DNA of 46,872 bases from an uncultured Burkholderiales bacterium (GTDB lineage Bacteria > Pseudomonadota > Gammaproteobacteria > Burkholderiales > Burkholderiaceae): contig CAMLJY010000051.1 of the NCBI GenBank assembly GCA_946480465.1, forward strand, positions 1-46,872, in the 5' to 3' direction. The position numbers and the translations under genes were made by a program. A model generated the notes under the pieces. The model had not been told where the DNA came from. It saw only the letters and a list, made by a program, of their open reading frames with translations, and did no database searches. Every line of letters starts with the position of its first letter. Position 1 is the first letter of the stretch. Shown piece after piece: positions 1-26,007 of the stretch.

Positions 1-510
1 GGTGCTGCCGTCGCCCAGCACCTGGCGCGGCGGGGCGGCGTGCGGCGAGCGGGCGTAGCGGGTCTGCAGGTAGCTGCCGGTGGTCAGCTCGGTGTCGTGC
101 TCCAAGCGCAGCAGCCAGCGCGCGGCGGGCCGCCAGCCCAGCTTCAGGCGCAGGCGGTGCGCGCCCTGGGTGTAGGGCTCGGTGTCGGGGCCGGGCGTGC
201 GGCCGTCGATGGCCAGGGCGCGGTAGGAGCCGGCCAGTTCGACGGTGGAATCGTCCTCGGGGCTTGCAGGCGAGGACGGCGCGGGCGCCGAGGGAGCGGG
301 CGCCGGCGCGGGTGCGGGTGCGGGTGCGGGGGCAGGAGCGCCAGGCGGCGCGGCCGGCCGCGGCGGCGGCGTGGGCCGCTCGACCGGGCGCGGCACGTGC
401 AGGTCGCTCAGGCGCAGCCAGTACGGGCCATCCGCTGCTGCTGCGGTGGCGGGCAGGCAGGCCGCGGCGAGGCAGGCGGCCAGCAGCGATGGGAACGAAG
501 GCAAGCTCAT
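1..510 (-). CDS. Outer-membrane-type secreted protein, partial (C-terminus beyond window)
   Basis: The first 170 codons are present and the gene runs off the left edge. The ATG at 510 overlaps the permease stop as ATGA, so the two are translationally coupled. Residues 1-27 form a hydrophobic signal peptide lacking basic residues, with an AAAA|D-like cleavage site; Cys13 and Cys18 could instead serve as weak lipoboxes. A Pro/Ala-rich linker follows (about residues 58-90, PAPAPA repeats). After it come alternating polar/hydrophobic stretches such as RLRLKLGW and RWLLRLEHDTEL, which look like outer-membrane beta-strands. As the last gene after a Lol-like ABC set, it may be the outer-membrane component. 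No family was recognised with confidence; a periplasmic protein remains possible. Confidence 0.7.
   Translation of the reverse strand, partial: MSLPSFPSLLAACLAAACLPATAAAADGPYWLRLSDLHVPRPVERPTPPPRPAAPPGAPAPAPAPAPAPAPAPSAPAPSSPASPEDDSTVELAGSYRALAIDGRTPGPDTEPYTQGAHRLRLKLGWRPAARWLLRLEHDTELTTGSYLQTRYARSPHAAPPRQVLGDGST
300..345. repeat. GCGGGT-type hexanucleotide tract encoding a PAPAPA linker
   Basis: Several near-perfect copies of gcgggt lie between about 308 and 331 and encode the Pro-Ala linker of the partial outer-membrane-type protein. Hexanucleotide slippage would change linker length by two residues without breaking the frame. Confidence 0.6.
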
Positions 511-3038
511 GGAACGCTGCGCATCGCTTCAACAGGATCCAGGCGCACCGTGCGCCAGGCGGGATAGACCGACGCGGCCAGCGCCAGCAGGAACAGCAGC
601 AGCGCGGGCCCGGCCAGCAGCGGCAGCGACAAGGCGGGATGCACGAGCTGGCTGCTGCCCGGCGTGGCGGCGACGCCGCGCACGGCGAGCTCGATGCCAT
701 CGATCGAGGCGATCCAGGCCACGCCCGCGCCCAGCGCCAGCCCGGCGGCCACGCCCAGCACGGCCAGCAGCAGCGCCTCGGCCATCACCAGGCGCACCAC
801 GGCCGCGCCCCCGGCGCCGATGGCCAGCAGCGTGCCGAAGTCACGGCGGCGCTCCATCACCGACATCAGCTGCGCGTTGGCGACGATCACGCCGACCATC
901 GTGAAGACGATGCCCAGCACGACGAGCAGGCCATGCCGCACCAGGCCGGAGAACTGGGCGATGTCGGGCATCAGCTGGGGCCAGGCCAGGGCCTGCAGGC
1001 CCACCGGCAGCAGCGGTGCGGCGGCACGGGCGGTGACCTCGGACGTCAGGGAGGATGCGCTGCGCTCCTGCAGGTGCACCAGCACGTGGGTGGCGTCGCG
1101 CGGTCCCAGGGCCAGCACGCGCCGGGCCTGCGCCAGGTGGATGAAGGCCATGGCCGCGTCCGCGCCGTGGGCGCCGGTCTCGAACAGGCCGGCGACGCGG
1201 AAGGCTTCGAACACCAGCTGGCCCTGGGCGTCCTGCAGCGTGAGGACCAGCTTCTCGCCAAGGCGCACGTCCAGCCGCTCGGCCAGCTTGCGGCCGATCA
1301 GCAGGTCGCGTGGGCCTTGCAAGGGGCTGCCTGCGGTCAGCGCCTGGGCCAGGCGGGCGGCGGCGTGGTCCCGGGCCGCGTCGAGGCCCACCAGGTTCAC
1401 CGGCTCGGCCTTGCGCGCGCTGCCCAGCGTGGCCTGCACCTGCACGCGCGGGCTGACGGCGGCCACCGCGGGCAGCTGGCCAAGCTGCGCGAGCCAGGCC
1501 GGGTCCGCGTCAAAAGCCAGGTCGGCGCGCTGTTCAGCCTGGAAGTCGCGGTGCTGGACCTGCACGTCGCCGCTGAGCAGGCCGGTGGCGTTGCGCACCA
1601 TCTGCGCCAGGAAGCCTTCGGCAAACGCCGCCGCAAAGATGAAGGCCGCCAGGCCCAGGCCCAGCGCGGCCAAGGACAGGCCACTGCGCCACGGCGTGCG
1701 CCACAGGCCGCGCGCGGCCACCTGCAGCGTGGCCGGCCACCAGTGCGGCGTTGCCCCCCACCAGCCGCACAGTCGCCGGCGGAACGCCGGCTTCACCGCC
1801 CGCCGGCTGGGGCCGCTGCCCCATGCGCCGCGCAGCGCCTGCACCGGCTGCAGGCGCGCCACCTTCCATGCCGGCACGGCTGCGGCCAGCAGGGCGACGG
1901 CCAGCAGACCGACCGCCACCTCGATCAGCCGTTCAGGCTGCAGCTGCGGCGAGATGACGGTGGACCCGCCGCCCATCGAGCGCAGCGCCTGTCCGTGCGA
2001 ACTGAAGTCCACGCCGCGGCTGCCCAGCCAGGCCACGGCCGGCACCGTGACCGCGCCGGCCAGCAGCAGCGCGCCGGCGACGATGCAGCCGCCTTCGTAC
2101 AGGATCAGCCGCACCAGCTGCGCCGGGCCGGCGCCGATGGCGCGCAAGGTGCCGAACTCGCGGATGCGCTGCGCCACCGACATCTGCAGCGCGCTGGCCA
2201 CGCCCAGCGCCACCACCGCGAACAGCACGGCCATGATCACGCGCACCACGCGCTCGTGGAAGTCGACCGACTGCGCCACCGGCGGCAGCAGCTCGCGCCA
2301 GCCGCGCGCGCGGTGGGTGGGCGGCAGCAGCGGGGCCAGTTCGGCGGCGACGGAGGGGCCCTGCTCCACCGACGCCAGCCGCAGCGCCACCGCGCTGACC
2401 CGGTCCGGCGCGCTGAAGAGCTGCTGTGCCGCTCCTAACGTCACAAACACATGTCCGGCATCGATGGCGTCGTTGCCGCTGGCGTAGATCCCCGCCACCC
2501 TGAAACGCTGTGCGCCGATGGCGCCGTACAGCCCTTCGGTGACGAGTGCCACCTCTTCCCCCGGCTGCACGGCCAGCACGCGCGCCAGCGCGGCGCCGAG
2601 CACGATGCCGTTCGCGTCCTGCGCGCGCAGGTAGTGGCCCTGGACGATGCGCTCGCCGAGCGACGTGACCGAACGCTCGCGCTGCGGATCGACCCCGTTG
2701 ACCAGGACGCCCCGGGCCTGGCGGCTGGACGCGATGAGCGCGGTGGACGACAGCCGCGGCGCGCTGGCGCGGATGCCGGGATGGCGCAGCGCCGCCGCCA
2801 CGTCAGCCAGCGCGAAGGCCTGCTCCAGCTTCGGGGAGTCCAGCTGCCGCTCGTGCTGCAGCTGCAGGTGGCCGCTGTGCGTGGCCGTCATGTTGCGCAC
2901 GAGCTGGGCATTGAGCCCGTCGAACATGGCCCACGCGAACAGCAGCGCGGCAATGCCGATCGCCAGGCTGCCGCCGGTCAGCAGCGTGCGCCGCCGCTGG
3001 CGCAGCGCGTTACGCGCGGCGAGCTTCAGCCACAGCAT
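507..3038 (-). CDS. ABC transporter permease with two tandem FtsX/LolCE-type halves
   Basis: This 843-residue protein has two copies of the FtsX/MacB layout. Each copy has an N-terminal membrane segment (about residues 20-42 and 470-495), a large extracytoplasmic domain, and three further membrane segments ending in PAWKVARLQPVQALR and PAWRTVRLDPVEAMR, the usual end of LolC/LolE and MacB permeases. It therefore looks like fused LolC and LolE equivalents. The start at 3038 (MLWLKLAARNALRQRRRTLL) matches family N-termini and overlaps the ATPase gene by 29 bases. With the ATPase and the LolA-like protein upstream it forms a Lol-like module that should take a lipidic substrate from the inner membrane. 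The substrate is not shown by the sequence. Confidence 0.9.
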   Translation of the reverse strand: MLWLKLAARNALRQRRRTLLTGGSLAIGIAALLFAWAMFDGLNAQLVRNMTATHSGHLQLQHERQLDSPKLEQAFALADVAAALRHPGIRASAPRLSSTALIASSRQARGVLVNGVDPQRERSVTSLGERIVQGHYLRAQDANGIVLGAALARVLAVQPGEEVALVTEGLYGAIGAQRFRVAGIYASGNDAIDAGHVFVTLGAAQQLFSAPDRVSAVALRLASVEQGPSVAAELAPLLPPTHRARGWRELLPPVAQSVDFHERVVRVIMAVLFAVVALGVASALQMSVAQRIREFGTLRAIGAGPAQLVRLILYEGGCIVAGALLLAGAVTVPAVAWLGSRGVDFSSHGQALRSMGGGSTVISPQLQPERLIEVAVGLLAVALLAAAVPAWKVARLQPVQALRGAWGSGPSRRAVKPAFRRRLCGWWGATPHWWPATLQVAARGLWRTPWRSGLSLAALGLGLAAFIFAAAFAEGFLAQMVRNATGLLSGDVQVQHRDFQAEQRADLAFDADPAWLAQLGQLPAVAAVSPRVQVQATLGSARKAEPVNLVGLDAARDHAAARLAQALTAGSPLQGPRDLLIGRKLAERLDVRLGEKLVLTLQDAQGQLVFEAFRVAGLFETGAHGADAAMAFIHLAQARRVLALGPRDATHVLVHLQERSASSLTSEVTARAAAPLLPVGLQALAWPQLMPDIAQFSGLVRHGLLVVLGIVFTMVGVIVANAQLMSVMERRRDFGTLLAIGAGGAAVVRLVMAEALLLAVLGVAAGLALGAGVAWIASIDGIELAVRGVAATPGSSQLVHPALSLPLLAGPALLLFLLALAASVYPAWRTVRLDPVEAMRSVP

Positions 3039-3777
3039 CGGCCGAGTCCTCCACGATCCTGCCGTCCTTGAGCCGGACGATGCGCCGCGCATGGCCCATC
3101 ACCTGCGGGTCGTGCGTCGAAAACACGAAGGTCGTGCCCAGTTCGACGTTCAGGCGCCGCATGGTCTCCAGCAGGCCGTGCGCGGTGTCCGAATCGAGGT
3201 TGGCGGTGGGCTCGTCGGCCAGCACCAGCTGCGGCCCACCCACCAGCGCGCGCGCCACGGCCACGCGCTGCTGCTGGCCACCGGAGAGCTCGTCCGGGCG
3301 GCGGTGCATGTGGCGCTCGAGACCCACGGCGGCCAGCATCGCCCTGGCACGGCTGTGCCGCTGCGCGGACGGCACCTTCTGCAACTGCAGCACGTACTCC
3401 ACGTTCTCCAGTGCGCTGAGCACCGGCATCAGGTTGTAGTTCTGAAACACGAAGCCCAGGCGGTGCAGGCGCAGCGCGGCCCGCTCGGACGGGCTGAGGG
3501 CTCGCAGGTCCTCGCCATCGATCGTGATGCTGCCGCGGTCCGGCGTGTCCAGCGCGCCGATGAGATGGAGCAGGCTGGACTTGCCCGAGCCCGACGGGCC
3601 GACCAGGGCCAGGAATTCGCCCGCGCGCACCGTGAGGTCGACGCCGGCCAGCGCGGTGACCGCCTGGCCGCCATGCCCGCCATGCCCGCCATGCCCGCCT
3701 TGCCCACCTTGGGCACCTTGGGCGTACACCCGGTGCACGCCACGCACCTGCAGCAAGCCGCCACCGGGGGCACTCAT
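3010..3777 (-). CDS. ABC transporter ATP-binding protein (LolD/MacB type)
   Basis: A 255-residue ATPase with Walker A GPSGSGKSS, signature LSGGQQQRVAVARAL, Walker B LVLADEPT and H-loop STHD. It drives the adjacent tandem FtsX permease. The ATG at 3777 overlaps the LolA-like stop (ATGA). The subfamily with PSGSGKSSLLHLIGALDTPDRG and FVFQNYNLMPVLSALENVE is the LolD/MacB one that energises mechanotransmission rather than classical import. An unusual Gly/His/Gln-rich insert (about residues 20-37) lies between the first two beta-strands and is encoded by a 9-bp repeat. That insert sits on the surface in related structures and should not block catalysis. Confidence 0.92.
   Translation of the reverse strand: MSAPGGGLLQVRGVHRVYAQGAQGGQGGHGGHGGHGGQAVTALAGVDLTVRAGEFLALVGPSGSGKSSLLHLIGALDTPDRGSITIDGEDLRALSPSERAALRLHRLGFVFQNYNLMPVLSALENVEYVLQLQKVPSAQRHSRARAMLAAVGLERHMHRRPDELSGGQQQRVAVARALVGGPQLVLADEPTANLDSDTAHGLLETMRRLNVELGTTFVFSTHDPQVMGHARRIVRLKDGRIVEDSADAVAEARRA
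3671..3724. repeat. 9-bp tandem repeat inside the ATPase gene (six units, three perfect)
   Basis: Three identical units ccatgcccg are followed by three diverged units of the same length. On the coding strand they give a Gly-Gly-His and Gly-Gly-Gln run in the ATPase N-terminal region. Unit length is a multiple of three, so copy number changes would keep the frame. Confidence 0.8.
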
Positions 3778-4556
3778 CGGCGCTGCCCCAGGTTCTGCAT
3801 CGAGAACGTGCGCGCGGGCACGCTGCGGTCGTAGAGCGCGCTCTTGACGACGATGGTGGTGTGCTTGCCCGGCTGGTCGGCAGGGCGCATCTCCCAGCGG
3901 GTGGGGATGTTGCGGCCGTCCATGGCGCGCCGCTCGGCGTACTGCAGCGTGCGCACCAGGTCGCCGCGCTCGTTGAAGTAGCGCACCACCAGCGGCAGCA
4001 GGTCGGTGCGGTCCACCAGCACGACGATGCGGCCCCACACCACGGCCGAGTCGGCCTTGGGCAGCAGTTCCAGCTCGTAGGCCGGGACGCCGGCTTCGAC
4101 CTTCTCGCCGACCAGGCGGTGCGTGTAGTCGGTGACGTAGCTGGCCTCGCGCACCATGTCGTCGTTGGTGAAGTCCGAGCCGAGCCAGGGCTGCAGCATC
4201 ATCGTCGGCGGGATCTTGATCACCCGCTCGATCGCGGGCATGTAGTTCCACATCTCCGAGCCGAGCCGCAGCGACAGGATGCCCGCGTCCTTGGCCGGCG
4301 CGGTGACCTGCACGAAGGACTTCGACGGGCGTTCCATGCTGACGTTCAAGGTCAGCGTCCGCGTCCAGCCGGGCGTGGTCACCGTCATCTCGAACACGGC
4401 CTGCAGGGTCTTGCCCCACAGCGTGGTCTCGACCTTCTCGACGATCTCGCTGGCGCTGGGGGCCGCCTGCACCGCCGGCGCGGCGCAGGCCGCGGCCGCC
4501 AGCAGCAGGGTCCGGCGCGTGGGGACGTGCGCGGGCATCACGTGGAACGGCGCCAT
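3774..4556 (-). CDS. LolA-like outer membrane lipoprotein-sorting protein
   Basis: A 260-residue secreted protein. The signal peptide contains TRRTLLLAAAACAAPAVQA, with an Arg pair that could use Tat or Sec. The mature part (SEIVEKVETTLWGK, MERPSKSFVQVTAPAKDAGILSL is typical in style, RVIKIPPTMM, GSDFTNDDMV) is the LolA-like outer-membrane lipoprotein-sorting family, a half-barrel that binds acyl chains in the periplasm. The start at 4556 follows the upstream stop by two bases; an in-frame ATG at 4538 is an alternative. It sits between a 4-TM protein and the LolD-like ATPase, the order expected for a hydrophobic-cargo shuttle. The product of the adjacent PKS-NRPS is a candidate cargo by context only. 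Confidence 0.88.
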   Translation of the reverse strand: MAPFHVMPAHVPTRRTLLLAAAACAAPAVQAAPSASEIVEKVETTLWGKTLQAVFEMTVTTPGWTRTLTLNVSMERPSKSFVQVTAPAKDAGILSLRLGSEMWNYMPAIERVIKIPPTMMLQPWLGSDFTNDDMVREASYVTDYTHRLVGEKVEAGVPAYELELLPKADSAVVWGRIVVLVDRTDLLPLVVRYFNERGDLVRTLQYAERRAMDGRNIPTRWEMRPADQPGKHTTIVVKSALYDRSVPARTFSMQNLGQRR

Positions 4557-4558
4557 CG

Positions 4559-5029
4559 TCACGCCGCCGCTTCGATCGCCGCCGCGGCCGGCGCGGCCGC
4601 GCGCCGGTCGGCCCGGGCCCAGCGGAACGACTGCAGGCACACCAGCAGGCTCGCGACGTGGTGCAGGTGGATGACGCCGAAGGGCCCGAAGGTCTGGCCG
4701 GCGAAGCCTTCGGACACGTGGGTGACGTGGTGCCCCGCGGTGTAGCCCAGCGCCGCGACGCCCAGCACGAACGCCAGCCAGCGGAACCAGCGCGCGTCCA
4801 CCAGGCTCACCGCCAGCGCCACCGCGCCATAGGCCATGAACAGGATGCAGGTGGCCCACCAGCCGCCGGGGCCCGGGTGGTACACGAACTCGCTGAAGTC
4901 GGTCTGCATCGCCGCCTGCATCAGCTGCGAGACGCTCACCATCACGATCGTCAGCGCCATCACGAGCCAGCCGGTGGTGATGCGGTGTTGAAGCTGCGCT
5001 GCAGTCCTCTGACGAATCACTTCACTCAT
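4559..5029 (-). CDS. Four-TM membrane protein of unknown function
   Basis: A 156-residue protein with membrane segments near residues 20-40, 58-78, 85-105 and 118-138. Histidines cluster near the last two segments (GHHVTHVSEGF and VIHLHHVASLL), which could bind metal or haem, but no family is recognised. The start at 5029 is chosen because AAGGAGA lies just upstream; the reading frame is open further, but that extension has no ribosome site. A 46-base gap separates it from the FAD oxidoreductase. It comes directly before the LolA-like gene, so a role in the transport module is plausible but not shown. Confidence 0.75.
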   Translation of the reverse strand: MSEVIRQRTAAQLQHRITTGWLVMALTIVMVSVSQLMQAAMQTDFSEFVYHPGPGGWWATCILFMAYGAVALAVSLVDARWFRWLAFVLGVAALGYTAGHHVTHVSEGFAGQTFGPFGVIHLHHVASLLVCLQSFRWARADRRAAAPAAAAIEAAA

Positions 5030-5075
5030 TTCCCATCTCCTTCCATGTGCGATGCAGAGATCAAAATATCGGACG

Positions 5076-6386
5076 TCAGAGAACCCAATGCTGCATTGGC
5101 GCATCCATCATCGACAGAACGGATTTCGCCGCTTCTTCCCCAGAGCTAAAGGCCGCTTCATGAGAGCCGATCAGATCCGGCCCGATGTCGCGCGAATGGA
5201 AATAGGAACCGCAGAACTTCACGCGGCCTTCGTTGTTCAGGGAATAGACCTGGCGCTGCATGTCCCGCACGGGCATCGTGATTCCCGGGTGGGTGTAGAC
5301 GTACTCCTTGACGATGGACGCTGGATCGAGGTCCAGCGGATAGTCGAGCGTGATGAAGTACTGGTGCTTTGCCCGGAGGTTCTGGATCCGGTTCATGTAA
5401 TACACGACATAGCCTTTGTCGCCTCCGTCCACCGGCACCCGTCCATAGTTCCAGGAGACCCACCGATTGCGATCCCTGGGCATCACGGAGGCGTCGGTGT
5501 GCAGCACGGTCTTCGTCGGGTGGTAGCGCACGACCGAGAGCAAGCGCTGCTGGATGCTCGTCGGGCGTGCCAGCATGGCGAGTGCGTCGTCGGCGTGGGT
5601 CGCAACGACGACGTAGTCGAATGCCCGCACATGGCCGTCGTCGAAGCGCAGATCGACACGATTGCCAACTTCATCCACGCCGACAACCTTGGAGTTCAGG
5701 CGAACTTCGGGTCGAACGATATCCAGCAAGCGCTTCACGTAGCAGGTGCTGCCACCGTCGACCGTGCGCCACGTCATGCGGCCTCCGAGGCCTCCGCTGC
5801 CGTGGTAACAGAAGAAGCCGATCACGGTGCTGGCCGGGATCTCCCAGAACACTTCCGGATCGGGGATGGACCACAGCGCGGACAGCAGGTGGCAGATGTA
5901 CTTGTCGCGGAACAGGGTGCTGTAGCCATTGGCCTGCAGGTACTCCGACAGGGGCACGTTGGCCCGGCCATTCTGGAAGTCCTTCGGGCTCTCGCGATGG
6001 AAGCGCTTGCCCTCCTCGATCACCTCGCACAGCCACGGTTCATAGCGCGTGGCAAGCTGATGCTCGGGAAGGTCGAAGTCGTCGGATACGTACTCCACGC
6101 CGCTGCCCCGATCGAAGAAGCTGAACGTGCTGACGTGCTCGGTCGATCCGATGCCGAGCTGCTGCAGGAACGGCGTGAAGCGCGGATAGCTGACCGGGTT
6201 GAAGATGATGAACGCGGTGTCGATGCCAAGAGTCGCACCCTCTTCTTCCACATACGCGGTGTTCGTGTGCCCACCCACGTACGGGCCACATTCCAGCAAC
6301 GTCAACTCCACCCGGTCTTTCAGTGCGTATGCCGCGGAAAGGCCTGCAATGCCAGTGCCGACAATGGCCACCCGGGGATTACTCAT
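5076..6386 (-). CDS. FAD-dependent amine-oxidase-fold oxidoreductase (COG2907-like)
   Basis: A 436-residue flavoprotein. The N-terminus has the Rossmann motif VGTGIAGLSAAY followed by LLECGPYVGGHTNT, and the C-terminus has an FAD-contacting stretch near CGSYF. The overall pattern is the COG2907 group of flavin amine-oxidase-fold proteins, which oxidise C-N or C-C bonds. The ATG at 6386 overlaps the NRPS stop (ATGA), so it is made together with the NRPS. By context it may oxidise a thiazoline to a thiazole or desaturate the acyl part of the product, since the NRPS has no embedded oxidase domain. Sampled GC is visibly lower than in the ABC genes (about 55% in 5101-5160), compatible with separate acquisition. 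The substrate is unknown. Confidence 0.85.
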   Translation of the reverse strand: MSNPRVAIVGTGIAGLSAAYALKDRVELTLLECGPYVGGHTNTAYVEEEGATLGIDTAFIIFNPVSYPRFTPFLQQLGIGSTEHVSTFSFFDRGSGVEYVSDDFDLPEHQLATRYEPWLCEVIEEGKRFHRESPKDFQNGRANVPLSEYLQANGYSTLFRDKYICHLLSALWSIPDPEVFWEIPASTVIGFFCYHGSGGLGGRMTWRTVDGGSTCYVKRLLDIVRPEVRLNSKVVGVDEVGNRVDLRFDDGHVRAFDYVVVATHADDALAMLARPTSIQQRLLSVVRYHPTKTVLHTDASVMPRDRNRWVSWNYGRVPVDGGDKGYVVYYMNRIQNLRAKHQYFITLDYPLDLDPASIVKEYVYTHPGITMPVRDMQRQVYSLNNEGRVKFCGSYFHSRDIGPDLIGSHEAAFSSGEEAAKSVLSMMDAPMQHWVL

Positions 6387-15441: not shown

Positions 15442-15457
15442 GAGGCGCAGTACTACG

Positions 15458-18400
15458 TCAGATCGTGATGGTTTCCAGATCCTCGTCAGGCACGTCGGCG
15501 GTGGTGCCCGAAACGTGTTTGACGATGGATTGCGCATAGATGAGTTCGGCCACTTCCCCTGCGGACGATCCAGCGAGGAAGTGCTTCAGCGGCACGTCCG
15601 CGCCCGCGTCATGGCGAATCCGGTTGCGCATTTCGACGGCCATCAGCGAGTCGAAGCCGAGCTGATTCAAAGGCGCGCTGGCGAAGTCGCGCTCAACCTC
15701 GGACCGGGCTTCCGCACCCAGCTTGAGAATCCGGCTTGCCGCTGCGAGCAGGTAGGCGAGGATGCGCACCTTGGCCGCTTCGGCCGGCAGGGCCAGCAGG
15801 TCGGCGCCCAGGGCGACGGTCGGCTCCCCAGGGCCGACCTCCGTGGGCGCTGCGACCGCTTCCCCGCCCAGCTCGGCCAGCAGGCGGTATGGCGTGGTGG
15901 GGAACATCACCGGCTTCAGGCGCGCCCAGTCCACGATGACCGCCCCACACTGCGTGGGTTGTGCGGCAACGAGGCGCTGCAGCGCGTTGATGCCTTGCCG
16001 CGTGTCGATGCCGCCCACGCCGATGCGTGCCATCCTGGCATTCAGGTCGTAGCGCGTCGCAACACCGATGTCCGACCAATAGCCCCAGTTGATGGAGACC
16101 CCGGTCAGTCCGCGATGGCGCCGGTGGCTGGCCAATGCGTCGAGGAAGGAGCAGGCGGCGATGTGATTGAACTGGCCGGCATTGCCGGCGAGCGAGGCGA
16201 GCGACGAATACAGCACGAAGTGGTCCAGTTCGAGTCCGGTGGTCAGCTCGTGCAGGTGCCAGGCGCCGAGCACTTTGGGTGCCATCACCTGTTGCACGCG
16301 GGGCCATGCCATGACACCGAGCGCGGCGTCGTCCGTCACGCCGGCGGAGTGAAAGACGCCCCGCAGCGGCGGCATCGATGCCTGCACCTGGGCCAGGACA
16401 TCGGCCAGCGCGGCACGGTCGGCCACGTCGGCGAGGAATGTCCGCACCGTTGCCCCTTGCGCCTGCAGCGCCTGCACCGCGGCTTCCGCCGCGGTGTCGG
16501 TCGTGCGGCCCAGCAGGGCCAGCGATCGGGCCCCGCGGTCCACCAGCCACTGCGCGGTGGCCAGGCCGATGCCGCGCAGCCCGCCGGTGACGAGGTAGGT
16601 GGCGTCGGACTTCATCGCGACTTCGCCGCCTGGCAGGTCGTCGGCGGGCAGCTCGCGCAGGCGGGCTTCGTACCAGCGGCCGGCCCGGACCGCCAGGTGC
16701 CCGGAACCGGGGAGTGCCCACATGCGGCCGAGGATCTGCGCCACCGGCACGTCGTCAGCGGCGGCGTCGGGGTCGAGATCGACCTGCAGCGACTGCACGC
16801 GCGGAAACTCCGGCGTGATGGCCTTGGCCATCGCCACCTCGGCGCACTGGGACAGGCCGGTGTCGTCCATGCGCTGGCCGAGCCCCGTGGCCTCGGCGGG
16901 CACCTGGGCGCCGCGGGTGCAGATCACCACGACGGGCTCCAGTTCGGCACAGACGAGCAGGAACTGCTTGCAGGCATGCAGCACCGCCTGGGCACGCGCG
17001 GCGACATCGTCCGGCACGGGAGCCAGGGCGACGGAAGAGCCGCCGTAGTAGATCAAGCCGGCCGGGCGCAGCTGCCGCGTGCGAAGGTCCTCGAAGCACC
17101 GTTGCCAGGAGGCCTCCGCATGCCAGTCCAGTTCGGCGGATTCGCCAGCCCGGGGCTTGTAGCCCGTGCCGGCGTGAACGGCAAAGGCTTTCAGTCCGAT
17201 GGCCTGGGCCTGCTTCGCCATCCGCAGGGCGACATCGCGATCGGGACTGGCGATGACCCAGGGCCGTGCGCTGTCGGTGTCACGCCCCGCGGCCGTCGCT
17301 GCTGCGGGGAGGTCCGTGCCCTGATCGAGTGGGATCCATTGCGTTCGGTAATAACGCACATCGGTCGCGGCACCGCTGTCGGCCATGGATGCCCGCCCCA
17401 CCAGCGCCAGTTGCATGCCGCGCACGGACACGATGCAGGCGCCATCGTCGCCATGGATGTCCAGGTCTGCCAGGTAGCGCCCCGGGGCCACCTCGCCGTG
17501 CCAGGTGCCGCGGGCCCAGAGGACGGCCGGCAGCCGCCGGCGCACGGTCAGGCGCGAGACGGCCGTCGGCAGCAGAGCCAGCGGGCGGCCAGCGATCGCC
17601 TGTTCCATGAATGGAATGGCGACGTGGAAGCAGGCGTCCAGCGTGGCGGGGTGGAGTTGGTAGGCCGACTCGTCCGCGACGCGGGCCGGCATCTCGATGC
17701 GCGCCAGCGATTCGCGATCGCCGAGCCACAGGCGCTTGACGCCTTGCAGGCCGGGGCCGTAACCCAGGCCGATGGCCGCGGCGCGCGCATAGAGGGGCTC
17801 GACCGCTTGTTCGTCCAGCGTTCGCTGCAGGGCCTGCGGGTCCAGCCCGGGAGGCGGCGTGGTGAAGCTGACCGCCGCGCGGGCCCGGGCCAAGCGGCGC
17901 CAGTCGCTCCACGCAGAGGCGCCGGTCTCATCGCCGTTGCGCTCGCGCGCCTGGACGGCGACGTCGCAGTTTCCGGCGGGACCGGTGCGACGCGCGGTGC
18001 ATTGCAGCTCCGCGGTGCGCCCTTCGGGCAAGGCCAGGCCGCCGGTGAGCGCCAGGTCTTGCAGGGTCCATTCGGGCGCGGGGTCGGATGCGCTGTGCCG
18101 GGCTGCCGCCAGCGCGGCTTCGATGAAGCCGGCCATCGGCATCACAGGGATGTCGAAGGCCCGATGCTCGTCGATGAACCACGGCGCCTGGCGCGTCAGG
18201 CTGGCGTTGAAGCGCCGCTCGTCGCTGCTGTCGGCCAGCGCCAGGCGATGGCCGAGCAGGGGATGCACAGCCGGCTCGCGCGACACGGCCACCCCGGGCT
18301 TGAACCAGTAGCGCTCCTGCTCGAAGGGGTAAGGCGGCAGCTCGACGGGCTGCATGGCGGCGGTGGTGCCCCCTGAACGCGCGCGGGCCCAGCCGGGCCA

Positions 18401-21400
18401 GTCCACCTGGCCACCCTGGGCGTACCACTCGCCCAGGCCGTGCAGCAGCTGCTCGTCGGCCTGCATGCCGCGGCGCAGGCTGGGCAGCCAAGTCCCCTCG
18501 CCCACTGACTGCTGGCCGAATGCGCTCAGCACCGGATGGGGGCCGGCCTCGATGAAGGCCGTGCAACCACGCGCGGCCAGGGTTTGCATGCCGCGCGCGA
18601 ATTCCACCGGGCGCAGGATGTGGTCGACCCAGTACGCGGGATCGGTCAGCTCGGGGCCGGCCAACATGCCGCTCACATTGGAAACTACTTCGAGGGTGGG
18701 AGCGTGGTATGCCACGGTCCGGGCGATGGCGGCGAATTCGTCCAGCATCCCGGCCATCAGCGGAGAGTGGAAGGCCCGTTCGACACGCAGCGGCGTGGCA
18801 TGCAGCCCGTCGCCTGGCGCCCGTTCGAGCCAACGCGCGACCCAGGCCGCGACGGCCCGAGGTTCGCCGGAGATCACGATGTCGGTCGGGGTGTTGCGCG
18901 CGGCCAGGGCCACGTCCGCGGGGGCGGCGCTGCGGAGCTCATCCGCCAGCACCTGGAGCCGCCCGGCGTCACCGCGCAGCGCCACCATGGCGCCGGGGGG
19001 CGTGCCATGCTGCATCAGCCGGCCGCGGTGGGCCACCAGCTTCAAGGCGTCCTGCACGCTGAAGACGCCGGCGACGCAGGCCGCGACGTATTCACCCAGG
19101 CTGTGCCCGATCAGGCACTGCGGCGCCAGGCCCGCGGAGCGCCAGACCTCGGCCAGCGCGTATTCGACGGCGAACAGCGCCGGCTGCGCGTACTGCGTCT
19201 GGCCCAGGTCGAACAGCCGGGCCTCGTCGCCATACAAGCCGTCGGCGAGAGAACGGCCGTCGAGCAGCGGGCGCAGGATCTCGTCGCACTGGTCGATGAG
19301 GCCGCGGAACAGGTGGTGGCCGCGGTACAGCTCGCGGCCCATGCCGGGGTACTGCGAACCTTGGCCGGTGAAGAGGAATGCCAGGCGCCCCCGGGCAGCC
19401 GGCTTCGACGTGGCGTGCACCGCCCCGTGCTCACCGTGCTGCAGGTAGTCGCCCAGCGCGACCGCCATCTCCTGACGGTTGCGGCCGACGATGGCCAGGC
19501 GCTGCGGCAGGTGCGCGCGGTGCGCATTGGCGGTGTGGCACAGCGCGGCCAGCGGTGCCGCGGATCCACCGGCCGCGTCGCCCGCCGGATCGAGCAACTG
19601 CACGAACTGCCGGGCCCGGCGCTTCAGTGCAGCTGGAGTCCTGGCCGAGATCGTGAGCAGTTGCGGCGCCGTCTCGTCCGCGGCGGGCGCGGCGATGTCG
19701 GCCGCCCGCGGTTCGTCGGACACGATCACGTGCGCATTGGCACCGCCGAAGCCGAACGAGCTGACCGCCGCGATGCGCGCCTGCGGTCCCCGCGGCCAGG
19801 GTTGCGGCTCCGCCAGCACGCTGCAGCGGGTGCCGTCCAGCGAGATGTGCGGGTTCAATTGCTGGAAGTGCAGGTTGCGCGGCAGCCGCTCGTGCCGCAT
19901 CGCCAGCAGCACCTTGCTCAGGCCGGCCAGGCCCGACACGGGTTCGGTGTGACCGATGTTGGACTTGGCCGAGCCGATCCACAGCGTGGGCGCTTGCGTC
20001 GACGCAACGCCGTAGGTGCGCTTGAGCGCATCCACCTCGATCGGGTCGCCCAGGCTGGTGCCGGTGCCGTGCGCTTCGACGTAGCTGACGGCCGACGCCT
20101 GCACGCCGGCCACGGCCAGGGCCTGGCGGATGACGGCCTGCTGCGCATCGGCGCTGGGCGCGGTGATGCCGTTGCTCTTGCCGTCCTGGTTGATCGCGGT
20201 GCCGCGGATGACGCCGTAGATGCGGTTGTTGTCACGCACCGCGTCGGCATGTCGCTTCAGCACCAGCACGGCGCAGCCTTCGCTGCGCACATAGCCGTTC
20301 GCCCGGGCATCGAAGGTCATGCAGCGGCCGTCCGGCGACAGCATCTGGGCCTGCGAGAGTGCGACGAACAGTTCGGGCGTCAGCAGGCAGTTGACGCCGC
20401 CCACCAGCGCCAGGCTGCATTCCCGGGACTGCAGGCTCATGCGGGCGCTGTGCAGCGCGACCAGGGACGACGAACAGGCCGTCTCCGCCACCCAGCTCGG
20501 TCCGCGCAGGTCGAACAGGTAGGAGATGCGGTTGGCCAGGATGCTGGCGTGGGTGCCGGTGCCGAAATAGGCGTCCAGCGGTGCGTTCTGGGCCACTTCC
20601 AGCAACTCGTAGTCGTGCGTCATGGCGCCGACGAATACGCCGGTGTCGCTGCCGGCCAGTGCGTCCGCTGCGATGCCGGCGTCTTCCAGCGCATGCCATG
20701 CGGTTTGCAGCAGCAGGCGCTGTTGCGGATCCATGCCGGCGGCTTCGCGCGGGGAGATGCCGAAGAAATGGGCATCGAAGCACTCGACCGCCTCCAGGAA
20801 GCCGCCCCACTTGGTGTATGCCTTGCCGGGCGTGGGTGGGCCGGGCTGGTAGTGGGCGTCGCCGTCCCAGCGCGACGCCGGGATCTCGGTGATGCCGTCC
20901 GCGCCGGCGTCCAGCAGTTGCCAGTACGCGGACGCGGAGTCCGCCTTCGGGAAACGGCAGGCCAGGCCGATGACGGCCATCGGCTCGGCCGCGGCCACCA
21001 CCGTTTCGCCACCGGCACTGCCCGTGGCGCCGGACGTGGCATGGCGTGCCAGGGCCTCGATGGTGGAGTGGCTGTACAGGGTCACCGGATCGATGGCCGT
21101 GCCGAGCCAGCGGCCCAGGGCAGCTGACAGCGCCGTCAGCTTCAGCGAATCCAGCCCCAGCGCGCTGAAGGGTTGCTGCACGTCGATGGCGGCGGGCTCG
21201 AGCCGCTGCTCGGCGGCGATGTGGCGCTTGAGCCAGTCGATGACCGATGGCAGCGAGGGCGCATCGAACGGCTGCGCTCCCGGGGTGGCCGCCGGCGTGG
21301 ACGCGGGTTCCTGCCATGCATGCAGCACCTCGAACCCGCCCGCCAGGTAGCTCTGCTTGCACGCCCGGCGCTGGATCTTGCCGCTGGAGGTGATGTGCAC

Positions 21401-23056
21401 CGACGCCGGCCGCAGCAGCTGCACCGCATGCACCTGCACGCCGTGCACGTCGGCGATGGCGGCGCGGATGGCCTGCACGACCTGCGCGCCGTCGATCTTG
21501 TGGCGTTGCGAGCGGCGCACTTCCTGCACGACGACCAGGCGCTCCTGCCCGCCCACCTCCACCGGGAAGGCCGCGCCGTGGCCGATCTCCAGCGCCGGGT
21601 GCGCGCGGTACATCGTGTGCTCGATGTCCTGCGGGTAGTGGTTCTGCCCGCGGATGATGATCAGGTCCTTGACCCGGCCGGTGATGTAGAGCTCGCCGTC
21701 CCGCTGCACACCCAGGTCGCCGGTGCGCAGCCAGGGGCCGCGGCCGTCGGCGGTGCGGGCGCCGAAGCTGTGTTCGGTTTCCGCGGCGCGCTGCCAGTAG
21801 CCCTGGGCGACCAGCGAGCCGCTGGCCCAGATCTCGCCGACCTGGCCGTCGACGCACACTTCATGCGTTACGGGGTCGACGATCGCGATCTGCGTGTCCA
21901 GCCATGCCCGCCCGCAGCTGACCAGCGGGTGCGCACGCTCCGGCCGCGCCGGCGGCGCCAGGCGGCCGCCGGTCAGCTCCTCCAGGTCCACGTCGATCAC
22001 CCGCGCGGCCTGCAGCCGCGGGTGCGAGGTGACGGTGAGCGTGGCCTCGGCCAGGCCATAGGACGGGTTCATCGCCGCGGGCCGGTAGCCGCGGGGCTCG
22101 AAGCGCCGCGCGAACTTCGCCAGCGTGTCGGCATGCACCGGCTCCGCCGCATTGCCCGCCACCGCCCAGCTCGACAGGTCCAGCGCATTCACCAGCGCCT
22201 GGTCCAGCGCCGAGGCGCACAGCTCGTACGCGAAGTTGGGCGCGTAGCTGATGGTGCCGCGGTAGCGGCTGATGGCCTGCAGCCAGCGCAGCGGCTTCTG
22301 CAGGAAGCACAGCGGCGGCATCATCACGATGGTGGCGCCGACGGCCAGGGCCTGGATCACGCCCAGGATCAGGCCCATGTCGTGGAACAGCGGCAGCCAG
22401 GTGACGAAGACGTCGTCTTCGTTGACCCCGGCGGCCTGGGTGTAGCTCTCGCAATAGCTCAGCAGGTTGCCGTGCGTGACCACCACGCCGCGCGGGTTGC
22501 TGGTGGAGCCCGAGGTGTATTGCAGGTAGGCGGTGCAGCCGCGGTCCAGCGCGGGTTCGCGCCAGCCGGCGCCGGCGGCCTCGGCCTCGCTGCTGCCGTC
22601 GATGGGAATGAACAGGCAGTCCAGCCCCTCGGGGAAATGCCGGCGCAGGCGCTCGCCGATGGACTCCAGCGCGCTGCTGGTGGCCACGATGGCGCCGCGC
22701 GCATTGCAGTCGGCCACGATGTGGGCCATGCGCTCGGCATGCATGCTGTTGGTGGGCGGATAACCCGGCACGGGAATGGCCCCGGCGTAAAGGCAGCCGA
22801 CGAAGGCGACGACGTAGTAGATGCTGGACGGCAGCATCAGCAGGATGGCGCGGCCCTGCAGGCCCTGTTGCTGCAGTTGCGCGGCGAAGACGCGGGCGCG
22901 GCGGTCCAGCTCGGCGTAGCTCAGGCGGCCGACCTCGGTGTCGCCGTCGGGCAGGAAGACCAGCGCGGGGTGGTCGGGGCGCACGCGGGCCTGGTGGCGC
23001 ACGGCGTCCACCAGCGAGGCATGGGACGCGTCGCCTTGAAGTTCGAAGCGGCTCAT
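15458..23056 (-). CDS. Type I PKS, FAAL-ACP-KS-AT-DH-KR-ACP
   Basis: A 2,532-residue synthase. A fatty acyl-AMP ligase (1 to about 585; YTSGSTSNPRG) loads a fatty acid onto ACP1 (Ser637). The KS has Cys861 in TACSSS and both catalytic His motifs (EAHGTGT, NIGHTEP). The AT has Ser1319 in GHSLGEY and RAFHS, which predicts malonyl-CoA. The DH keeps His1631 and a downstream Asp in LHPATLDACFH, though HxxxG reads HRAFD. The KR binds NADPH through TGGLRGIG, but the Tyr position is His2298 (GQFNHIAAC) and the Asn four residues on is Cys. ACP2 has Ser2470, and the chain ends in the acidic tail PDEDLETITI that can dock onto TubC domains. The FAAL-PKS-Cys NRPS order recalls micacocidin assembly in Ralstonia, so iterative use is possible. 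The ATG at 23056 overlaps the leader ORF stop and has no clear ribosome site of its own. Confidence 0.95.
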   Translation of the reverse strand: MSRFELQGDASHASLVDAVRHQARVRPDHPALVFLPDGDTEVGRLSYAELDRRARVFAAQLQQQGLQGRAILLMLPSSIYYVVAFVGCLYAGAIPVPGYPPTNSMHAERMAHIVADCNARGAIVATSSALESIGERLRRHFPEGLDCLFIPIDGSSEAEAAGAGWREPALDRGCTAYLQYTSGSTSNPRGVVVTHGNLLSYCESYTQAAGVNEDDVFVTWLPLFHDMGLILGVIQALAVGATIVMMPPLCFLQKPLRWLQAISRYRGTISYAPNFAYELCASALDQALVNALDLSSWAVAGNAAEPVHADTLAKFARRFEPRGYRPAAMNPSYGLAEATLTVTSHPRLQAARVIDVDLEELTGGRLAPPARPERAHPLVSCGRAWLDTQIAIVDPVTHEVCVDGQVGEIWASGSLVAQGYWQRAAETEHSFGARTADGRGPWLRTGDLGVQRDGELYITGRVKDLIIIRGQNHYPQDIEHTMYRAHPALEIGHGAAFPVEVGGQERLVVVQEVRRSQRHKIDGAQVVQAIRAAIADVHGVQVHAVQLLRPASVHITSSGKIQRRACKQSYLAGGFEVLHAWQEPASTPAATPGAQPFDAPSLPSVIDWLKRHIAAEQRLEPAAIDVQQPFSALGLDSLKLTALSAALGRWLGTAIDPVTLYSHSTIEALARHATSGATGSAGGETVVAAAEPMAVIGLACRFPKADSASAYWQLLDAGADGITEIPASRWDGDAHYQPGPPTPGKAYTKWGGFLEAVECFDAHFFGISPREAAGMDPQQRLLLQTAWHALEDAGIAADALAGSDTGVFVGAMTHDYELLEVAQNAPLDAYFGTGTHASILANRISYLFDLRGPSWVAETACSSSLVALHSARMSLQSRECSLALVGGVNCLLTPELFVALSQAQMLSPDGRCMTFDARANGYVRSEGCAVLVLKRHADAVRDNNRIYGVIRGTAINQDGKSNGITAPSADAQQAVIRQALAVAGVQASAVSYVEAHGTGTSLGDPIEVDALKRTYGVASTQAPTLWIGSAKSNIGHTEPVSGLAGLSKVLLAMRHERLPRNLHFQQLNPHISLDGTRCSVLAEPQPWPRGPQARIAAVSSFGFGGANAHVIVSDEPRAADIAAPAADETAPQLLTISARTPAALKRRARQFVQLLDPAGDAAGGSAAPLAALCHTANAHRAHLPQRLAIVGRNRQEMAVALGDYLQHGEHGAVHATSKPAARGRLAFLFTGQGSQYPGMGRELYRGHHLFRGLIDQCDEILRPLLDGRSLADGLYGDEARLFDLGQTQYAQPALFAVEYALAEVWRSAGLAPQCLIGHSLGEYVAACVAGVFSVQDALKLVAHRGRLMQHGTPPGAMVALRGDAGRLQVLADELRSAAPADVALAARNTPTDIVISGEPRAVAAWVARWLERAPGDGLHATPLRVERAFHSPLMAGMLDEFAAIARTVAYHAPTLEVVSNVSGMLAGPELTDPAYWVDHILRPVEFARGMQTLAARGCTAFIEAGPHPVLSAFGQQSVGEGTWLPSLRRGMQADEQLLHGLGEWYAQGGQVDWPGWARARSGGTTAAMQPVELPPYPFEQERYWFKPGVAVSREPAVHPLLGHRLALADSSDERRFNASLTRQAPWFIDEHRAFDIPVMPMAGFIEAALAAARHSASDPAPEWTLQDLALTGGLALPEGRTAELQCTARRTGPAGNCDVAVQARERNGDETGASAWSDWRRLARARAAVSFTTPPPGLDPQALQRTLDEQAVEPLYARAAAIGLGYGPGLQGVKRLWLGDRESLARIEMPARVADESAYQLHPATLDACFHVAIPFMEQAIAGRPLALLPTAVSRLTVRRRLPAVLWARGTWHGEVAPGRYLADLDIHGDDGACIVSVRGMQLALVGRASMADSGAATDVRYYRTQWIPLDQGTDLPAAATAAGRDTDSARPWVIASPDRDVALRMAKQAQAIGLKAFAVHAGTGYKPRAGESAELDWHAEASWQRCFEDLRTRQLRPAGLIYYGGSSVALAPVPDDVAARAQAVLHACKQFLLVCAELEPVVVICTRGAQVPAEATGLGQRMDDTGLSQCAEVAMAKAITPEFPRVQSLQVDLDPDAAADDVPVAQILGRMWALPGSGHLAVRAGRWYEARLRELPADDLPGGEVAMKSDATYLVTGGLRGIGLATAQWLVDRGARSLALLGRTTDTAAEAAVQALQAQGATVRTFLADVADRAALADVLAQVQASMPPLRGVFHSAGVTDDAALGVMAWPRVQQVMAPKVLGAWHLHELTTGLELDHFVLYSSLASLAGNAGQFNHIAACSFLDALASHRRHRGLTGVSINWGYWSDIGVATRYDLNARMARIGVGGIDTRQGINALQRLVAAQPTQCGAVIVDWARLKPVMFPTTPYRLLAELGGEAVAAPTEVGPGEPTVALGADLLALPAEAAKVRILAYLLAAASRILKLGAEARSEVERDFASAPLNQLGFDSLMAVEMRNRIRHDAGADVPLKHFLAGSSAGEVAELIYAQSIVKHVSGTTADVPDEDLETITI

Positions 23057-23202
23057 GCTGGCGCGCACACCCGTCTCGTCGTGGTCGGGCCACTTGCAAG
23101 CGTGCAAAAGACGCGGCCATCTGTTGCCGCCACCGCGGCGGCCGGAATGGCCCCGTGCCGCGGTCCTTGGGTACCAGGCGCGCAGTGCCGCGCTGATTGC
23201 AT
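23053..23202 (-). CDS. 49-residue leader ORF coupled to the PKS start
   Basis: This ORF has the best ribosome site in the region: AAGGAGA at 23213-23207, five bases from the ATG at 23202. Its stop overlaps the PKS start (ATGA), and the PKS itself has no Shine-Dalgarno sequence, so ribosomes finishing here could re-initiate on the PKS. The peptide (MQSARHCAPGTQGPRHGAIP and on) has no recognisable domain and includes Cys at 7, 33 and 46. Codon use is not typical of the neighbours, which fits a regulatory leader rather than a functional protein. It could be chance; the ribosome site and the exact overlap are the support. Confidence 0.5.
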   Translation of the reverse strand: MQSARHCAPGTQGPRHGAIPAAAVAATDGRVFCTLASGPTTTRRVCAPA

Positions 23203-23293: not shown

Positions 23294-23480
23294 TCGCGGC
23301 CTGCCTGGGCTGCGATGGGCTTCTGCAGCCCGGTGTTTCCCTCGTGGCGCGGGCCCCGGCGGCGCCGCCGGGCGGCAGAGTCCGCATCGGCAAGGTGGGC
23401 CGAATCGCCGCCCCGGCCGCATGACGGCGGTGTGAAACATGCGCCTTTGGTGGCATACCGACCGGCGTGCCAAGGGCCCA

Positions 23481-23496
23481 TGCGCCAATGCGCCAA
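23481..23496. repeat. Tandem 8-bp repeat, possible activator site
   Basis: Two perfect adjacent copies of tgcgccaa lie midway between two divergent sigma-54-like promoters. Location suits an upstream activator sequence; no dyad matching a known DctD or NtrC site is evident. Confidence 0.4.
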
Positions 23497-23653
23497 TGCC
23501 GGCGGCGCCCGTTGCCGTGTCCGGTTCGATACCGCTGGCCAGGGTGCGGGGGGCGGATCAATACACTGGCGCCTTCGTGCGCTGCTGCCCCGCGGGGTGC
23601 CGTACCCCCTTGGCCCGCCCTGCGCGCCGGGGGGCCGGCGGCCGGCCGGGGCC

Positions 23654-23671
23654 TTGGCACGGCACGTGCAA
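23654..23671 (+). promoter_or_regulatory. Sigma-54-type promoter for the DctB-like kinase
   Basis: The plus strand reads TTGGCACGGCACGTGCAA, with GG at 23656-23657 and GC at 23668-23669, exactly ten bases apart. Transcription would begin near 23681, leaving only about ten bases before the ATG at 23691. Confidence 0.55.
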
Positions 23672-23690
23672 GCCACGCCCATCACTCGCC

Positions 23691-25607: not shown

Positions 25608-26007
25608 CGGTCTCAAGGTGGTGTTCGTGGAAGACGACGCCGACGTGCGCGACAGCCTGTCGCAGACGCTGGAACTGGCCGGATTCGAAGTCTGCCCCTG
25701 CGACAGCGCCGAGTCCGCGCTGCGGCAGCTGCCGCCGCGCTTTCCGGGCATCGTCGTCAGCGACGTGCGGCTGCCCGGCATGGACGGCCTGGCGCTGATG
25801 AGGCGGGTGCTGGAGACCGACGCCGGCTTGCCGGTGATCCTGGTGACCGGCCACGGCGACGTGCCGATGGCCGTGCGGGCCATTCGCGAAGGCGCCTACG
25901 ACTTCATCGAGAAGCCCTTCGCCGCGTCGCGGCTGGTCGAGGCCGCGCGCAGCGCCGCGCGGGAGCGTGCGTTCCGGCTCGGTGCCGGTGGCCACGGCGC
26001 GTGCTAG
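25600..26007 (+). CDS. Receiver-only response regulator, truncated DctD relative
   Basis: A 135-residue single receiver domain with acidic pocket Glu11-Asp12-Asp13, phosphoacceptor Asp55 (VSDVRLPGMDG) and Lys in IEKPF. It closely resembles the receiver of the full activator at 30837, including VTGHGDVPMAV and REGAYDFIEKPF, but ends 20 residues later with no AAA+ or DNA-binding domain. The bases after the stop show no trace of one in any frame I examined. It overlaps the kinase gene (ATG at 25600), so the two are co-translated. It may relay or drain phosphate for another regulator. Deletion or natural shortening of a DctD gene is the likely origin. Confidence 0.88.
   Translation: MRDGLKVVFVEDDADVRDSLSQTLELAGFEVCPCDSAESALRQLPPRFPGIVVSDVRLPGMDGLALMRRVLETDAGLPVILVTGHGDVPMAVRAIREGAYDFIEKPFAASRLVEAARSAARERAFRLGAGGHGAC

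What the first reader, a model, noticed from the sequence alone, without database searches (positions are those of the whole stretch)
1..23202. PKS-NRPS lipid assembly line in one operon with a Lol-like transport module
Head-to-tail order with ATGA or short gaps joins FAAL-PKS, trans-methyltransferase, bis-cysteine NRPS, flavoenzyme, a 4-TM protein, LolA-like shuttle, LolD-like ATPase, tandem FtsX permease and an outer-membrane-type protein. Known Lol systems move lipoproteins; a dedicated copy fused to a small-molecule pathway suggests that the bis-thiazoline-type lipid is delivered to, or through, the outer membrane by Lol-style chemistry. Precedent for the assembly line (micacocidin in Ralstonia) is from memory; the transport link is inference.
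Basis: partly seen in the sequence, partly recalled or inferred. Interest (0 to 1): 0.8.

Follow-up and report, generated by a model that had tools for sequence, protein, structure and literature searches.

The report
Lipid assembly line with Lol-type conveyor
A bacterial gene cluster that probably builds a fatty, cysteine-containing small molecule carries its own copy of a machine related to the one bacteria use to move lipoproteins to their outer membrane, and the pairing seems to recur in related bacteria, which suggests that such machines may also carry specialised lipids.

Summary
Nine minus-strand genes run head to tail (gaps -29 to +46 nt): FAAL-PKS, trans-methyltransferase, two-module Cys NRPS, flavoenzyme, small membrane protein, LolA-like protein (PF17131), LolD-like ATPase, tandem FtsX permease, and an outer-membrane-type protein cut by the window edge. 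Comparative evidence favours the transport link: exact contig-length matches put a LolA-like relative with 4 of 18 close NRPS relatives, and the five NRPS-linked LolA-like proteins share a 16-tip clade that holds 1 of 13 unlinked proteins from long contigs. Best reading: an accessory Lol-type conveyor for apolar cargo, captured and kept by this PKS-NRPS family. Two chemical claims weaken. 'Bis-thiazoline' is unlikely, because the second cyclization domain lacks three catalytic or structural elements in the window and its 18 close relatives. Micacocidin-type assembly is unlikely: domain order differs, the window's ketoreductase has lost its Tyr and Asn, and no TonB receptor or reductase was seen in the frames scanned. 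Cargo and function are inferred.

The parts
15458..23056 (-). FAAL-ACP-KS-AT-DH-KR-ACP polyketide synthase; KR active-site Tyr and Asn replaced (QFNHIAACSFLDALA)
   Evidence: Pfam; motif comparison with homologous PKSs; residue roles recalled
13735..15441 (-). stand-alone methyltransferase with TubC_N docking domain (probably trans-acting)
   Evidence: Pfam; tblastn hits to methyltransferase regions inside PKS/NRPS genes
6383..13738 (-). NRPS TubC_N-Cy1-A-PCP-Cy2*-A-PCP-TE; Cy2* lacks the first Asp of DxxxxD, the dyad Thr and the floor-loop Asp
   Evidence: Pfam, alignment of relatives, alignment to EpoB and BmdB Cy structures, tree
5076..6386 (-). FAD-dependent oxidoreductase, possible tailoring enzyme
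4559..5029 (-). small hydrophobic protein, no known family, at least 2 membrane spans
   Evidence: no Pfam or NCBIfam match; hydropathy; no match in the plasmid collection at E <= 0.1
3774..4556 (-). LolA-like periplasmic protein (PF17131)
   Evidence: Pfam; AlphaFold2 model and Foldseek match to solved LolA-superfamily structures
3010..3777 (-). LolD-like ABC ATPase
   Evidence: Pfam and NCBIfam
507..3038 (-). single-chain tandem FtsX permease (LolC/LolE/LolF-like)
   Evidence: Pfam, NCBIfam; closest solved chains by sequence LolF, LolE, LolC
1..510 (-). first 170 residues of an outer-membrane-type protein, cut by the window edge; weak match to the last protein of the conserved cassette
   Evidence: 92-residue part scores 4.5 bits against the cassette profile; 0 of 2000 shuffles as high, best shuffle 4.1, only 1135 shuffles given a score

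Best explanation
The operon makes a fatty-acid-primed polyketide-thiazoline-cysteine metabolite and exports it, or places it in the outer membrane, with a dedicated Lol-type conveyor. Proposed steps: the FAAL loads a fatty acid onto the first ACP; the PKS extends it with malonate, with KR probably inactive so that a beta-keto group stays (iteration not excluded); the methyltransferase acts in trans; Cy1 adds and cyclizes one cysteine; the diverged Cy2* joins a second cysteine without normal ring closure; the TE releases the chain; the flavoenzyme may oxidise it. The amphiphile enters the inner membrane, the tandem FtsX permease with the LolD-like ATPase lifts it out, the LolA-like protein shields it across the periplasm, and the outer-membrane-type protein receives it. 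Shown by sequence: gene content, order and domain anatomy. Supported by model or comparison: LolA fold, recurrence of this NRPS with a LolA-like protein, stand-alone cassette elsewhere. Inferred: product structure, substrate of the conveyor, direction and destination.
For: Gene overlaps. The five NRPS-linked LolA-like proteins (window included) sit in one 16-tip clade with 1 of 13 unlinked long-contig proteins (one-sided Fisher p = 0.0007, tips not independent). The conveyor genes form a conserved cassette in 20 of 20 selected Bacteroidota loci and in Vibrio; a LolA-like match at E <= 1e-20 occurs in 46 of 198 Bacteroidota genomes, so it looks accessory; 8 of the 20 loci carry a TetR-like gene next to it, Pfam-confirmed for the 3 that I tested. 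The LolA-like model matches LolA-superfamily structures. Proposals in print of Lol homologues in specialised-lipid loci: aryl polyenes (PMC8253772, passages) and flexirubin (PMC11885536, passages).
Against: No cargo was tested. Elsewhere the cassette has no biosynthetic partner nearby, so its substrate could be a common lipid or a lipoprotein; PF17131 itself is common (6 of 14 control genomes). For 14 of 18 NRPS relatives no linked LolA-like protein was seen (both lists stop at 120 rows and many contigs are short). The clade support is moderate (0.785). The match of the cut outer-membrane-type protein is weak, and gene order in the window (LolA, LolD, FtsX-FtsX, OMP) differs from the cassette (LolA, FtsX, FtsX, LolD, OMP). 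In one early Bacteroidota locus (L006) no LolD was found beside LolA and FtsX. KR loss was seen in the window's PKS only.
Confidence: 0.5

Rival explanations
1. General conveyor next door: the cassette moves a common lipid or lipoprotein and shares a transcript with the pathway without carrying its product.
For: The cassette stands without PKS or NRPS in 20 of 20 selected Bacteroidota loci and in Vibrio. Closest solved permeases by sequence are the lipoprotein transporters LolF, LolE and LolC.
Against: Apparent recurrent linkage with one NRPS family and a matching LolA-like clade; gene overlaps.
Confidence: 0.25
2. Siderophore pathway of the micacocidin/massiliachelin type, with the Lol-like genes as an unusual exporter of a free metallophore.
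For: FAAL-PKS plus Cys NRPS with one intact Cy domain resembles micacocidin-type lines; one source names several relatives 'yersiniabactin nonribosomal peptide synthetase'.
Against: No match to one Fur-box consensus with up to 3 mismatches (little power in GC-rich DNA); no TonB receptor or thiazolinyl reductase among the 26 frames given to Pfam, with the left flank unseen; DH present, KR residues lost, MT separate; a FAAL-PKS/NRPS plasmid locus of Undibacterium has TonB receptor, MFS and ABC genes instead.
Confidence: 0.15
3. Self-protection: the conveyor clears a membrane-active product from the producer's inner membrane, as an efflux system, with no placement in the outer membrane.
For: Castellaniella AmeABCD, with a LolA-superfamily protein, an outer-membrane protein and an RND pump, raises tolerance to apolar monoterpenes (PMC6394551, passages); TetR-like neighbours in 8 of 20 Bacteroidota loci.
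Against: LolA-type carriers normally hand over to the outer membrane (recalled); no toxicity data.
Confidence: 0.1

Closest known systems
Aryl polyene / flexirubin loci (ApeL-ApeM-ApeN; F. johnsoniae LolA2-LolB2)
   Same: Specialised-lipid synthesis genes together with LolA-like and LolB-like genes proposed to help place the product in the outer membrane (passages)
   Different: In the aryl polyene locus an RND transporter is proposed for the inner-membrane step and synthesis is FAS-like; here a LolD plus FtsX ABC transporter and a modular FAAL-PKS-NRPS
Lol system (LolCDE/LolF, LolA, LolB)
   Same: LolD-like ATPase, LolCE-like permease halves, LolA fold
   Different: Scores under NCBIfam equivalog cut-offs, PF17131 match only, permease fused in one chain, no LolB match, an outer-membrane-type protein instead
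Borrelia BBJ23-29 cluster
   Same: LolA-like protein, type VII ABC transporter and outer-membrane barrel, proposed to move a non-polar ligand (passages)
   Different: Omp85-type barrel; the seven-gene cluster described there holds no biosynthetic genes
Castellaniella AmeABCD
   Same: Outer-membrane DUF1302 protein plus LolA-superfamily protein for apolar small molecules in a betaproteobacterium (passages)
   Different: RND pump, DUF1329 protein, degradation locus
YbbAP-TesA
   Same: Single-chain duplicated type VII permease, proposed to extract hydrophobic compounds (passages)
   Different: Periplasmic partner is a hydrolase; YbbP is not among the permease's sequence matches
Micacocidin / massiliachelin
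   Same: FAAL-primed PKS followed by Cys module (passages)
   Different: Domain notation there has KS-AT-KR without DH and MT inside the assembly-line protein, with a separate thiazolinyl reductase for massiliachelin
Photoxenobactin (PxbG Cy4)
   Same: Cy domain proposed to join cysteine without ring closure, giving thio-acid-type termini (passages)
   Different: That Cy keeps the first Asp of the motif; here it is lost in the window and its 18 close relatives

Membership tests
LolA_like (PF17131) | Score above Pfam's curated cut-off and LolA fold | tested here: met
   160.5 against 30 bits; Foldseek E 1.7e-14 to 9tp6, TM 0.62/0.66, rmsd 6.0; model residues 81-140 weak
Canonical Lol system | LolD and LolC/E above the NCBIfam equivalog cut-offs | tested here: not met
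   LolD 221.5 against 307.75; LolCE 235.3 against 362.45
Canonical Lol system | LolB receptor beside it | tested here: inconclusive
   no LolB match among the operon's proteins; the left flank lies outside the window
Canonical Lol system | Cargo is lipoprotein | not testable with these tools
   needs mutants
MacAB-TolC-type efflux | Periplasmic adaptor (MacA/HlyD-like) | tested here: not met
   none among the operon's proteins
Five-gene cassette LolA-FtsX-FtsX-LolD-OMP (named here) | LolA-like, two FtsX units and LolD side by side | tested here: met
   window; cassette; gene order differs
Five-gene cassette LolA-FtsX-FtsX-LolD-OMP (named here) | Homologous outer-membrane-type protein | tested here: inconclusive
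   4.5 bits over 92 residues; 0 of 2000 shuffles as high, best 4.1; the cassette protein itself has no Pfam match in the two tested
Micacocidin-type assembly line | FAAL-ACP-KS-AT-KR-ACP with working KR | tested here: not met
   DH present; KR Tyr and Asn replaced
Micacocidin-type assembly line | TonB receptor and thiazolinyl reductase in the locus | tested here: inconclusive
   not seen in the 26 frames scanned; left flank lies outside the window
Bis-thiazoline NRPS | Two Cy domains with DxxxxD, Asp-Thr dyad and floor-loop Asp | tested here: not met
   Cy1 19 of 19 keep all; Cy2 0 of 19 keep the first Asp, the Thr or the floor-loop Asp, 19 of 19 keep the second Asp and the dyad Asp
Bis-thiazoline NRPS | Two Cys-type A domains | tested here: met
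   motifs in both A domains; the Cys code itself is recalled

The most novel reading that the evidence does not exclude
A complete Lol-type machine (type VII ABC transporter, LolA-like shuttle, outer-membrane protein) has been recruited as the dedicated conveyor of a PKS-NRPS lipid, and belongs to an undescribed, phylum-crossing cassette whose general job is to carry apolar small molecules, not lipoproteins, across the periplasm.
Probability: 0.4. Interest if true: 0.78.

Novelty: new variant of a known kind. Interest (0 to 1): 0.6.

Why it matters
How Gram-negative bacteria move very lipophilic metabolites past the periplasm is poorly understood. Lol homologues have been proposed for aryl polyenes and flexirubin, and the flexirubin authors write that such a specialisation would, to their knowledge, be the first (PMC11885536, passages). 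This locus adds an ABC-driven version coupled to an assembly line, with a relative in a named species, Pseudoduganella namucuonensis, so that a clean deletion of one LolA-like gene could test it. The loss of cyclization residues in the second Cy domain of the window and its 18 close relatives also points to an unusual cysteine terminus.

Tried and rejected
Whole-genome reading of the source: not possible. A Burkholderiales-centred genome search was not possible, so I used contig-length identity between protein lists as a stand-in for synteny. The single genome-contig scan returned only Bacteroidota MAGs, 9 confirmed of 24 candidate stretches. Of L001-L009, four (L001, L002, L005, L008) show LolA, FtsX and LolD; three (L003, L004, L006) show LolA and FtsX without a LolD hit, of which L003 is cut soon after, while L006 has more than 4 kb beyond its FtsX hit; two (L007, L009) are cut at LolA. 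Plasmid searches found the LolA-like protein in 6 records and the small membrane protein in none; in the near-identity search no record covers 80% of the operon and the five listed cover at most 4%. The flavoenzyme belongs to a broad family without pathway link apart from one contig length. One Fur-box consensus was not found. LolA-like genes raised under iron or hemin limitation in Porphyromonas and Prevotella (PMC10470040, PMC10434189, passages) sit with MMPL transporters and were not used as precedent. Paper searches, seen as listings (titles and starts of abstracts): 25 of 38 listed; 3 of 3; 20 of 32; 12 of 12; 0; 2 of 2; 15 of 29; none of the listed items, nor the passages I read, describes this pairing or the five-gene cassette. 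Subscription papers are not in that library, so absence from print is not shown.
Full report
Anatomy. The nine genes were called from open frames and start sites. Order from the 5' end on the minus strand: PKS 23056-15458, methyltransferase 15441-13735, NRPS 13738-6383, FAD enzyme 6386-5076, small hydrophobic protein 5029-4559, LolA-like 4556-3774, LolD-like 3777-3010, tandem FtsX 3038-507, outer-membrane-type protein 510-1 (cut). Gaps: +16, -4, -4, +46, +2, -4, -29, -4. The terminator scan of 1-20000 found 6 sites against 6.7 expected; none lies in a gap. One transcript is therefore likely but not shown.

Assembly line. The PKS is FAAL-ACP-KS-AT-DH-KR-ACP. Active-site motifs of KS, AT, DH (His and Asp) and both ACPs are present; in KR the stretch aligned with the catalytic Tyr and Asn of homologues reads QFNHIAACSFLDALA, so both residues are replaced (residue roles recalled). 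A Streptomyces FAAL-PKS, 41% identical over nearly its full length, keeps Tyr and Asn; one Nostoc KR also has His for Tyr but keeps Asn (L016, L018). The PKSs that belong to the NRPS relatives were not retrieved, so loss of KR is claimed for the window only.

Second Cy domain. Among the best 120 NRPS hits I took as close relatives the 18 with the same Pfam set (two of them with one extra match), 2419-2504 residues and 48% identity or more. With the window, n = 19: Cy1 keeps both Asp of DxxxxD, the dyad Thr and Asp and the floor-loop Asp in 19 of 19; Cy2 keeps the first Asp in 0 of 19, the Thr in 0 of 19, the floor-loop Asp in 0 of 19, the second Asp and the dyad Asp in 19 of 19 (alignments). 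Four more distant sequences in that alignment were not counted: P0310 (same domains, 43%) lacks the first Asp and the floor-loop Asp but keeps the Thr; P0347, P0351 and P0359 (39-40%; P0351 has the same domains too) have both domains intact. So the change marks the close relatives, not every NRPS of this layout. Alignment to EpoB and BmdB structures places the lost residues, whose roles are described in PMC9547227 (passages). The Cy2 domains of the 19 form one clade with support 1.000 on a long branch. A conserved replacement motif argues for a changed function and not decay. Photoxenobactin gives a proposed precedent for a Cy domain that stops before ring closure (PMC9396620, passages). 'Bis-thiazoline' is therefore unlikely.

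Transport module. The LolA-like protein matches PF17131 only. AlphaFold2 (40 sequences, mean pLDDT 77.5, pTM 0.76; residues 81-140 weak) and Foldseek give LolA-superfamily structures: P. gingivalis LolA3, NE2245, a DUF1329 protein and a Vibrio protein first, classical LolA further down. The permease is closest in sequence to LolF, LolE and LolC. The published LolA3 bound LolB only very weakly (PMC13103446, passages). PF17131 is common: the family rang in 6 of 14 control genomes, over the cut-off in 4.

Is the pairing real? The protein database gives no neighbourhood, but it prints the longest contig of each cluster. Among 18 close NRPS relatives, 4 share an exact contig length with one of 120 listed LolA-like hits (442491, 500855, 95366, 16206), against 0 of 102 other listed NRPSs; source, and where given organism, agree in each pair. 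The control tests coincidence of lengths only, since many of the 102 come from organisms without an outer membrane. The flavoenzyme joins them on the 442491 length in Pseudoduganella namucuonensis. A tree of 120 LolA-like proteins (window plus 119 hits; the identical P0121 left out) rooted on Vibrio puts the 5 linked proteins in one clade of 16 tips, support 0.785; of 13 proteins from contigs of 25 kb or more without an NRPS match, 12 lie outside and 1 (P0192, next to linked P0218) inside (Fisher p = 0.0007, a test made after seeing the tree and on related tips). Both lists stop at 120 rows, and similarity to the window orders both.

Does the module occur without the pathway? Yes. Of 198 Bacteroidota genomes, 46 have a LolA-like match at E <= 1e-20 (completeness not told). 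I took 20 of the 46, the best-scoring ones with enough flank: in 20 of 20 LolA-like, two FtsX units (in six loci one continuous hit), LolD and a relative of the Vibrio outer-membrane-type protein follow in this order, and none shows a PKS or NRPS hit in the roughly 20-kb stretch. The other 26 were not examined. Vibrio campbellii has the same five genes, and no PKS or NRPS hit in its 31-kb stretch. The fifth protein is barrel-like by eye only: two tested members match no Pfam family. A TetR-like gene lies next to the cassette in 8 of the 20 loci (same strand in 5; TetR_N confirmed in the 3 tested); other neighbours are shared by at most 5 loci. The cut protein of the window gives 4.5 bits to the profile of the fifth protein; of 2000 shuffles none scored as high (best 4.1; 1135 received a score); the full 170 residues gave 2.7 bits. 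This is suggestive only.

Interpretation. The most economical account is an accessory Lol-type conveyor for apolar cargo, widespread as a unit, which one lineage of bacteria, to judge by the named relatives near Burkholderiales, has tied to a FAAL-PKS-NRPS pathway. Precedents make the account plausible: aryl polyene and flexirubin loci, AmeABCD, the Borrelia cluster and YbbAP-TesA, all read as passages only. What the conveyor carries, and where to, is not shown.

Noticed in passing
L051-L070, L013: A five-gene cassette LolA-like, FtsX, FtsX, LolD, outer-membrane-type protein in 20 of 20 selected Bacteroidota loci and in Vibrio campbellii, with a TetR-like gene beside it in 8 of the 20; the listed paper searches showed no description of it.
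   Followed up: partly
window 8999-10351 (-): Non-canonical Cy domain (lost first Asp of DxxxxD, dyad Thr, floor-loop Asp) in the window and its 18 close relatives, with a conserved motif of its own.
   Followed up: yes
window 15458-23056 (-): KR domain of the PKS lacks the catalytic Tyr and Asn while DH keeps its His and Asp.
   Followed up: partly
window 23439-26007 (+): Divergent histidine kinase and single receiver-domain response regulator beside the PKS start; possible regulator of the operon.
   Followed up: no
window 26186-27961 (+): 591-residue frame with a high third-position GC signal and no Pfam match.
   Followed up: no
L016: Streptomyces sp. NBC_01435 plasmid has a FAAL-PKS (41% identical) followed by NRPS frames that match the window's NRPS, without a hit to the LolA-like, LolD or FtsX proteins in 30 kb.
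   Followed up: partly
L015: Pseudoalteromonas plasmid carries a LolA-like gene directly after an MMPL transporter, beside gamma-mobile-trio genes.
   Followed up: no
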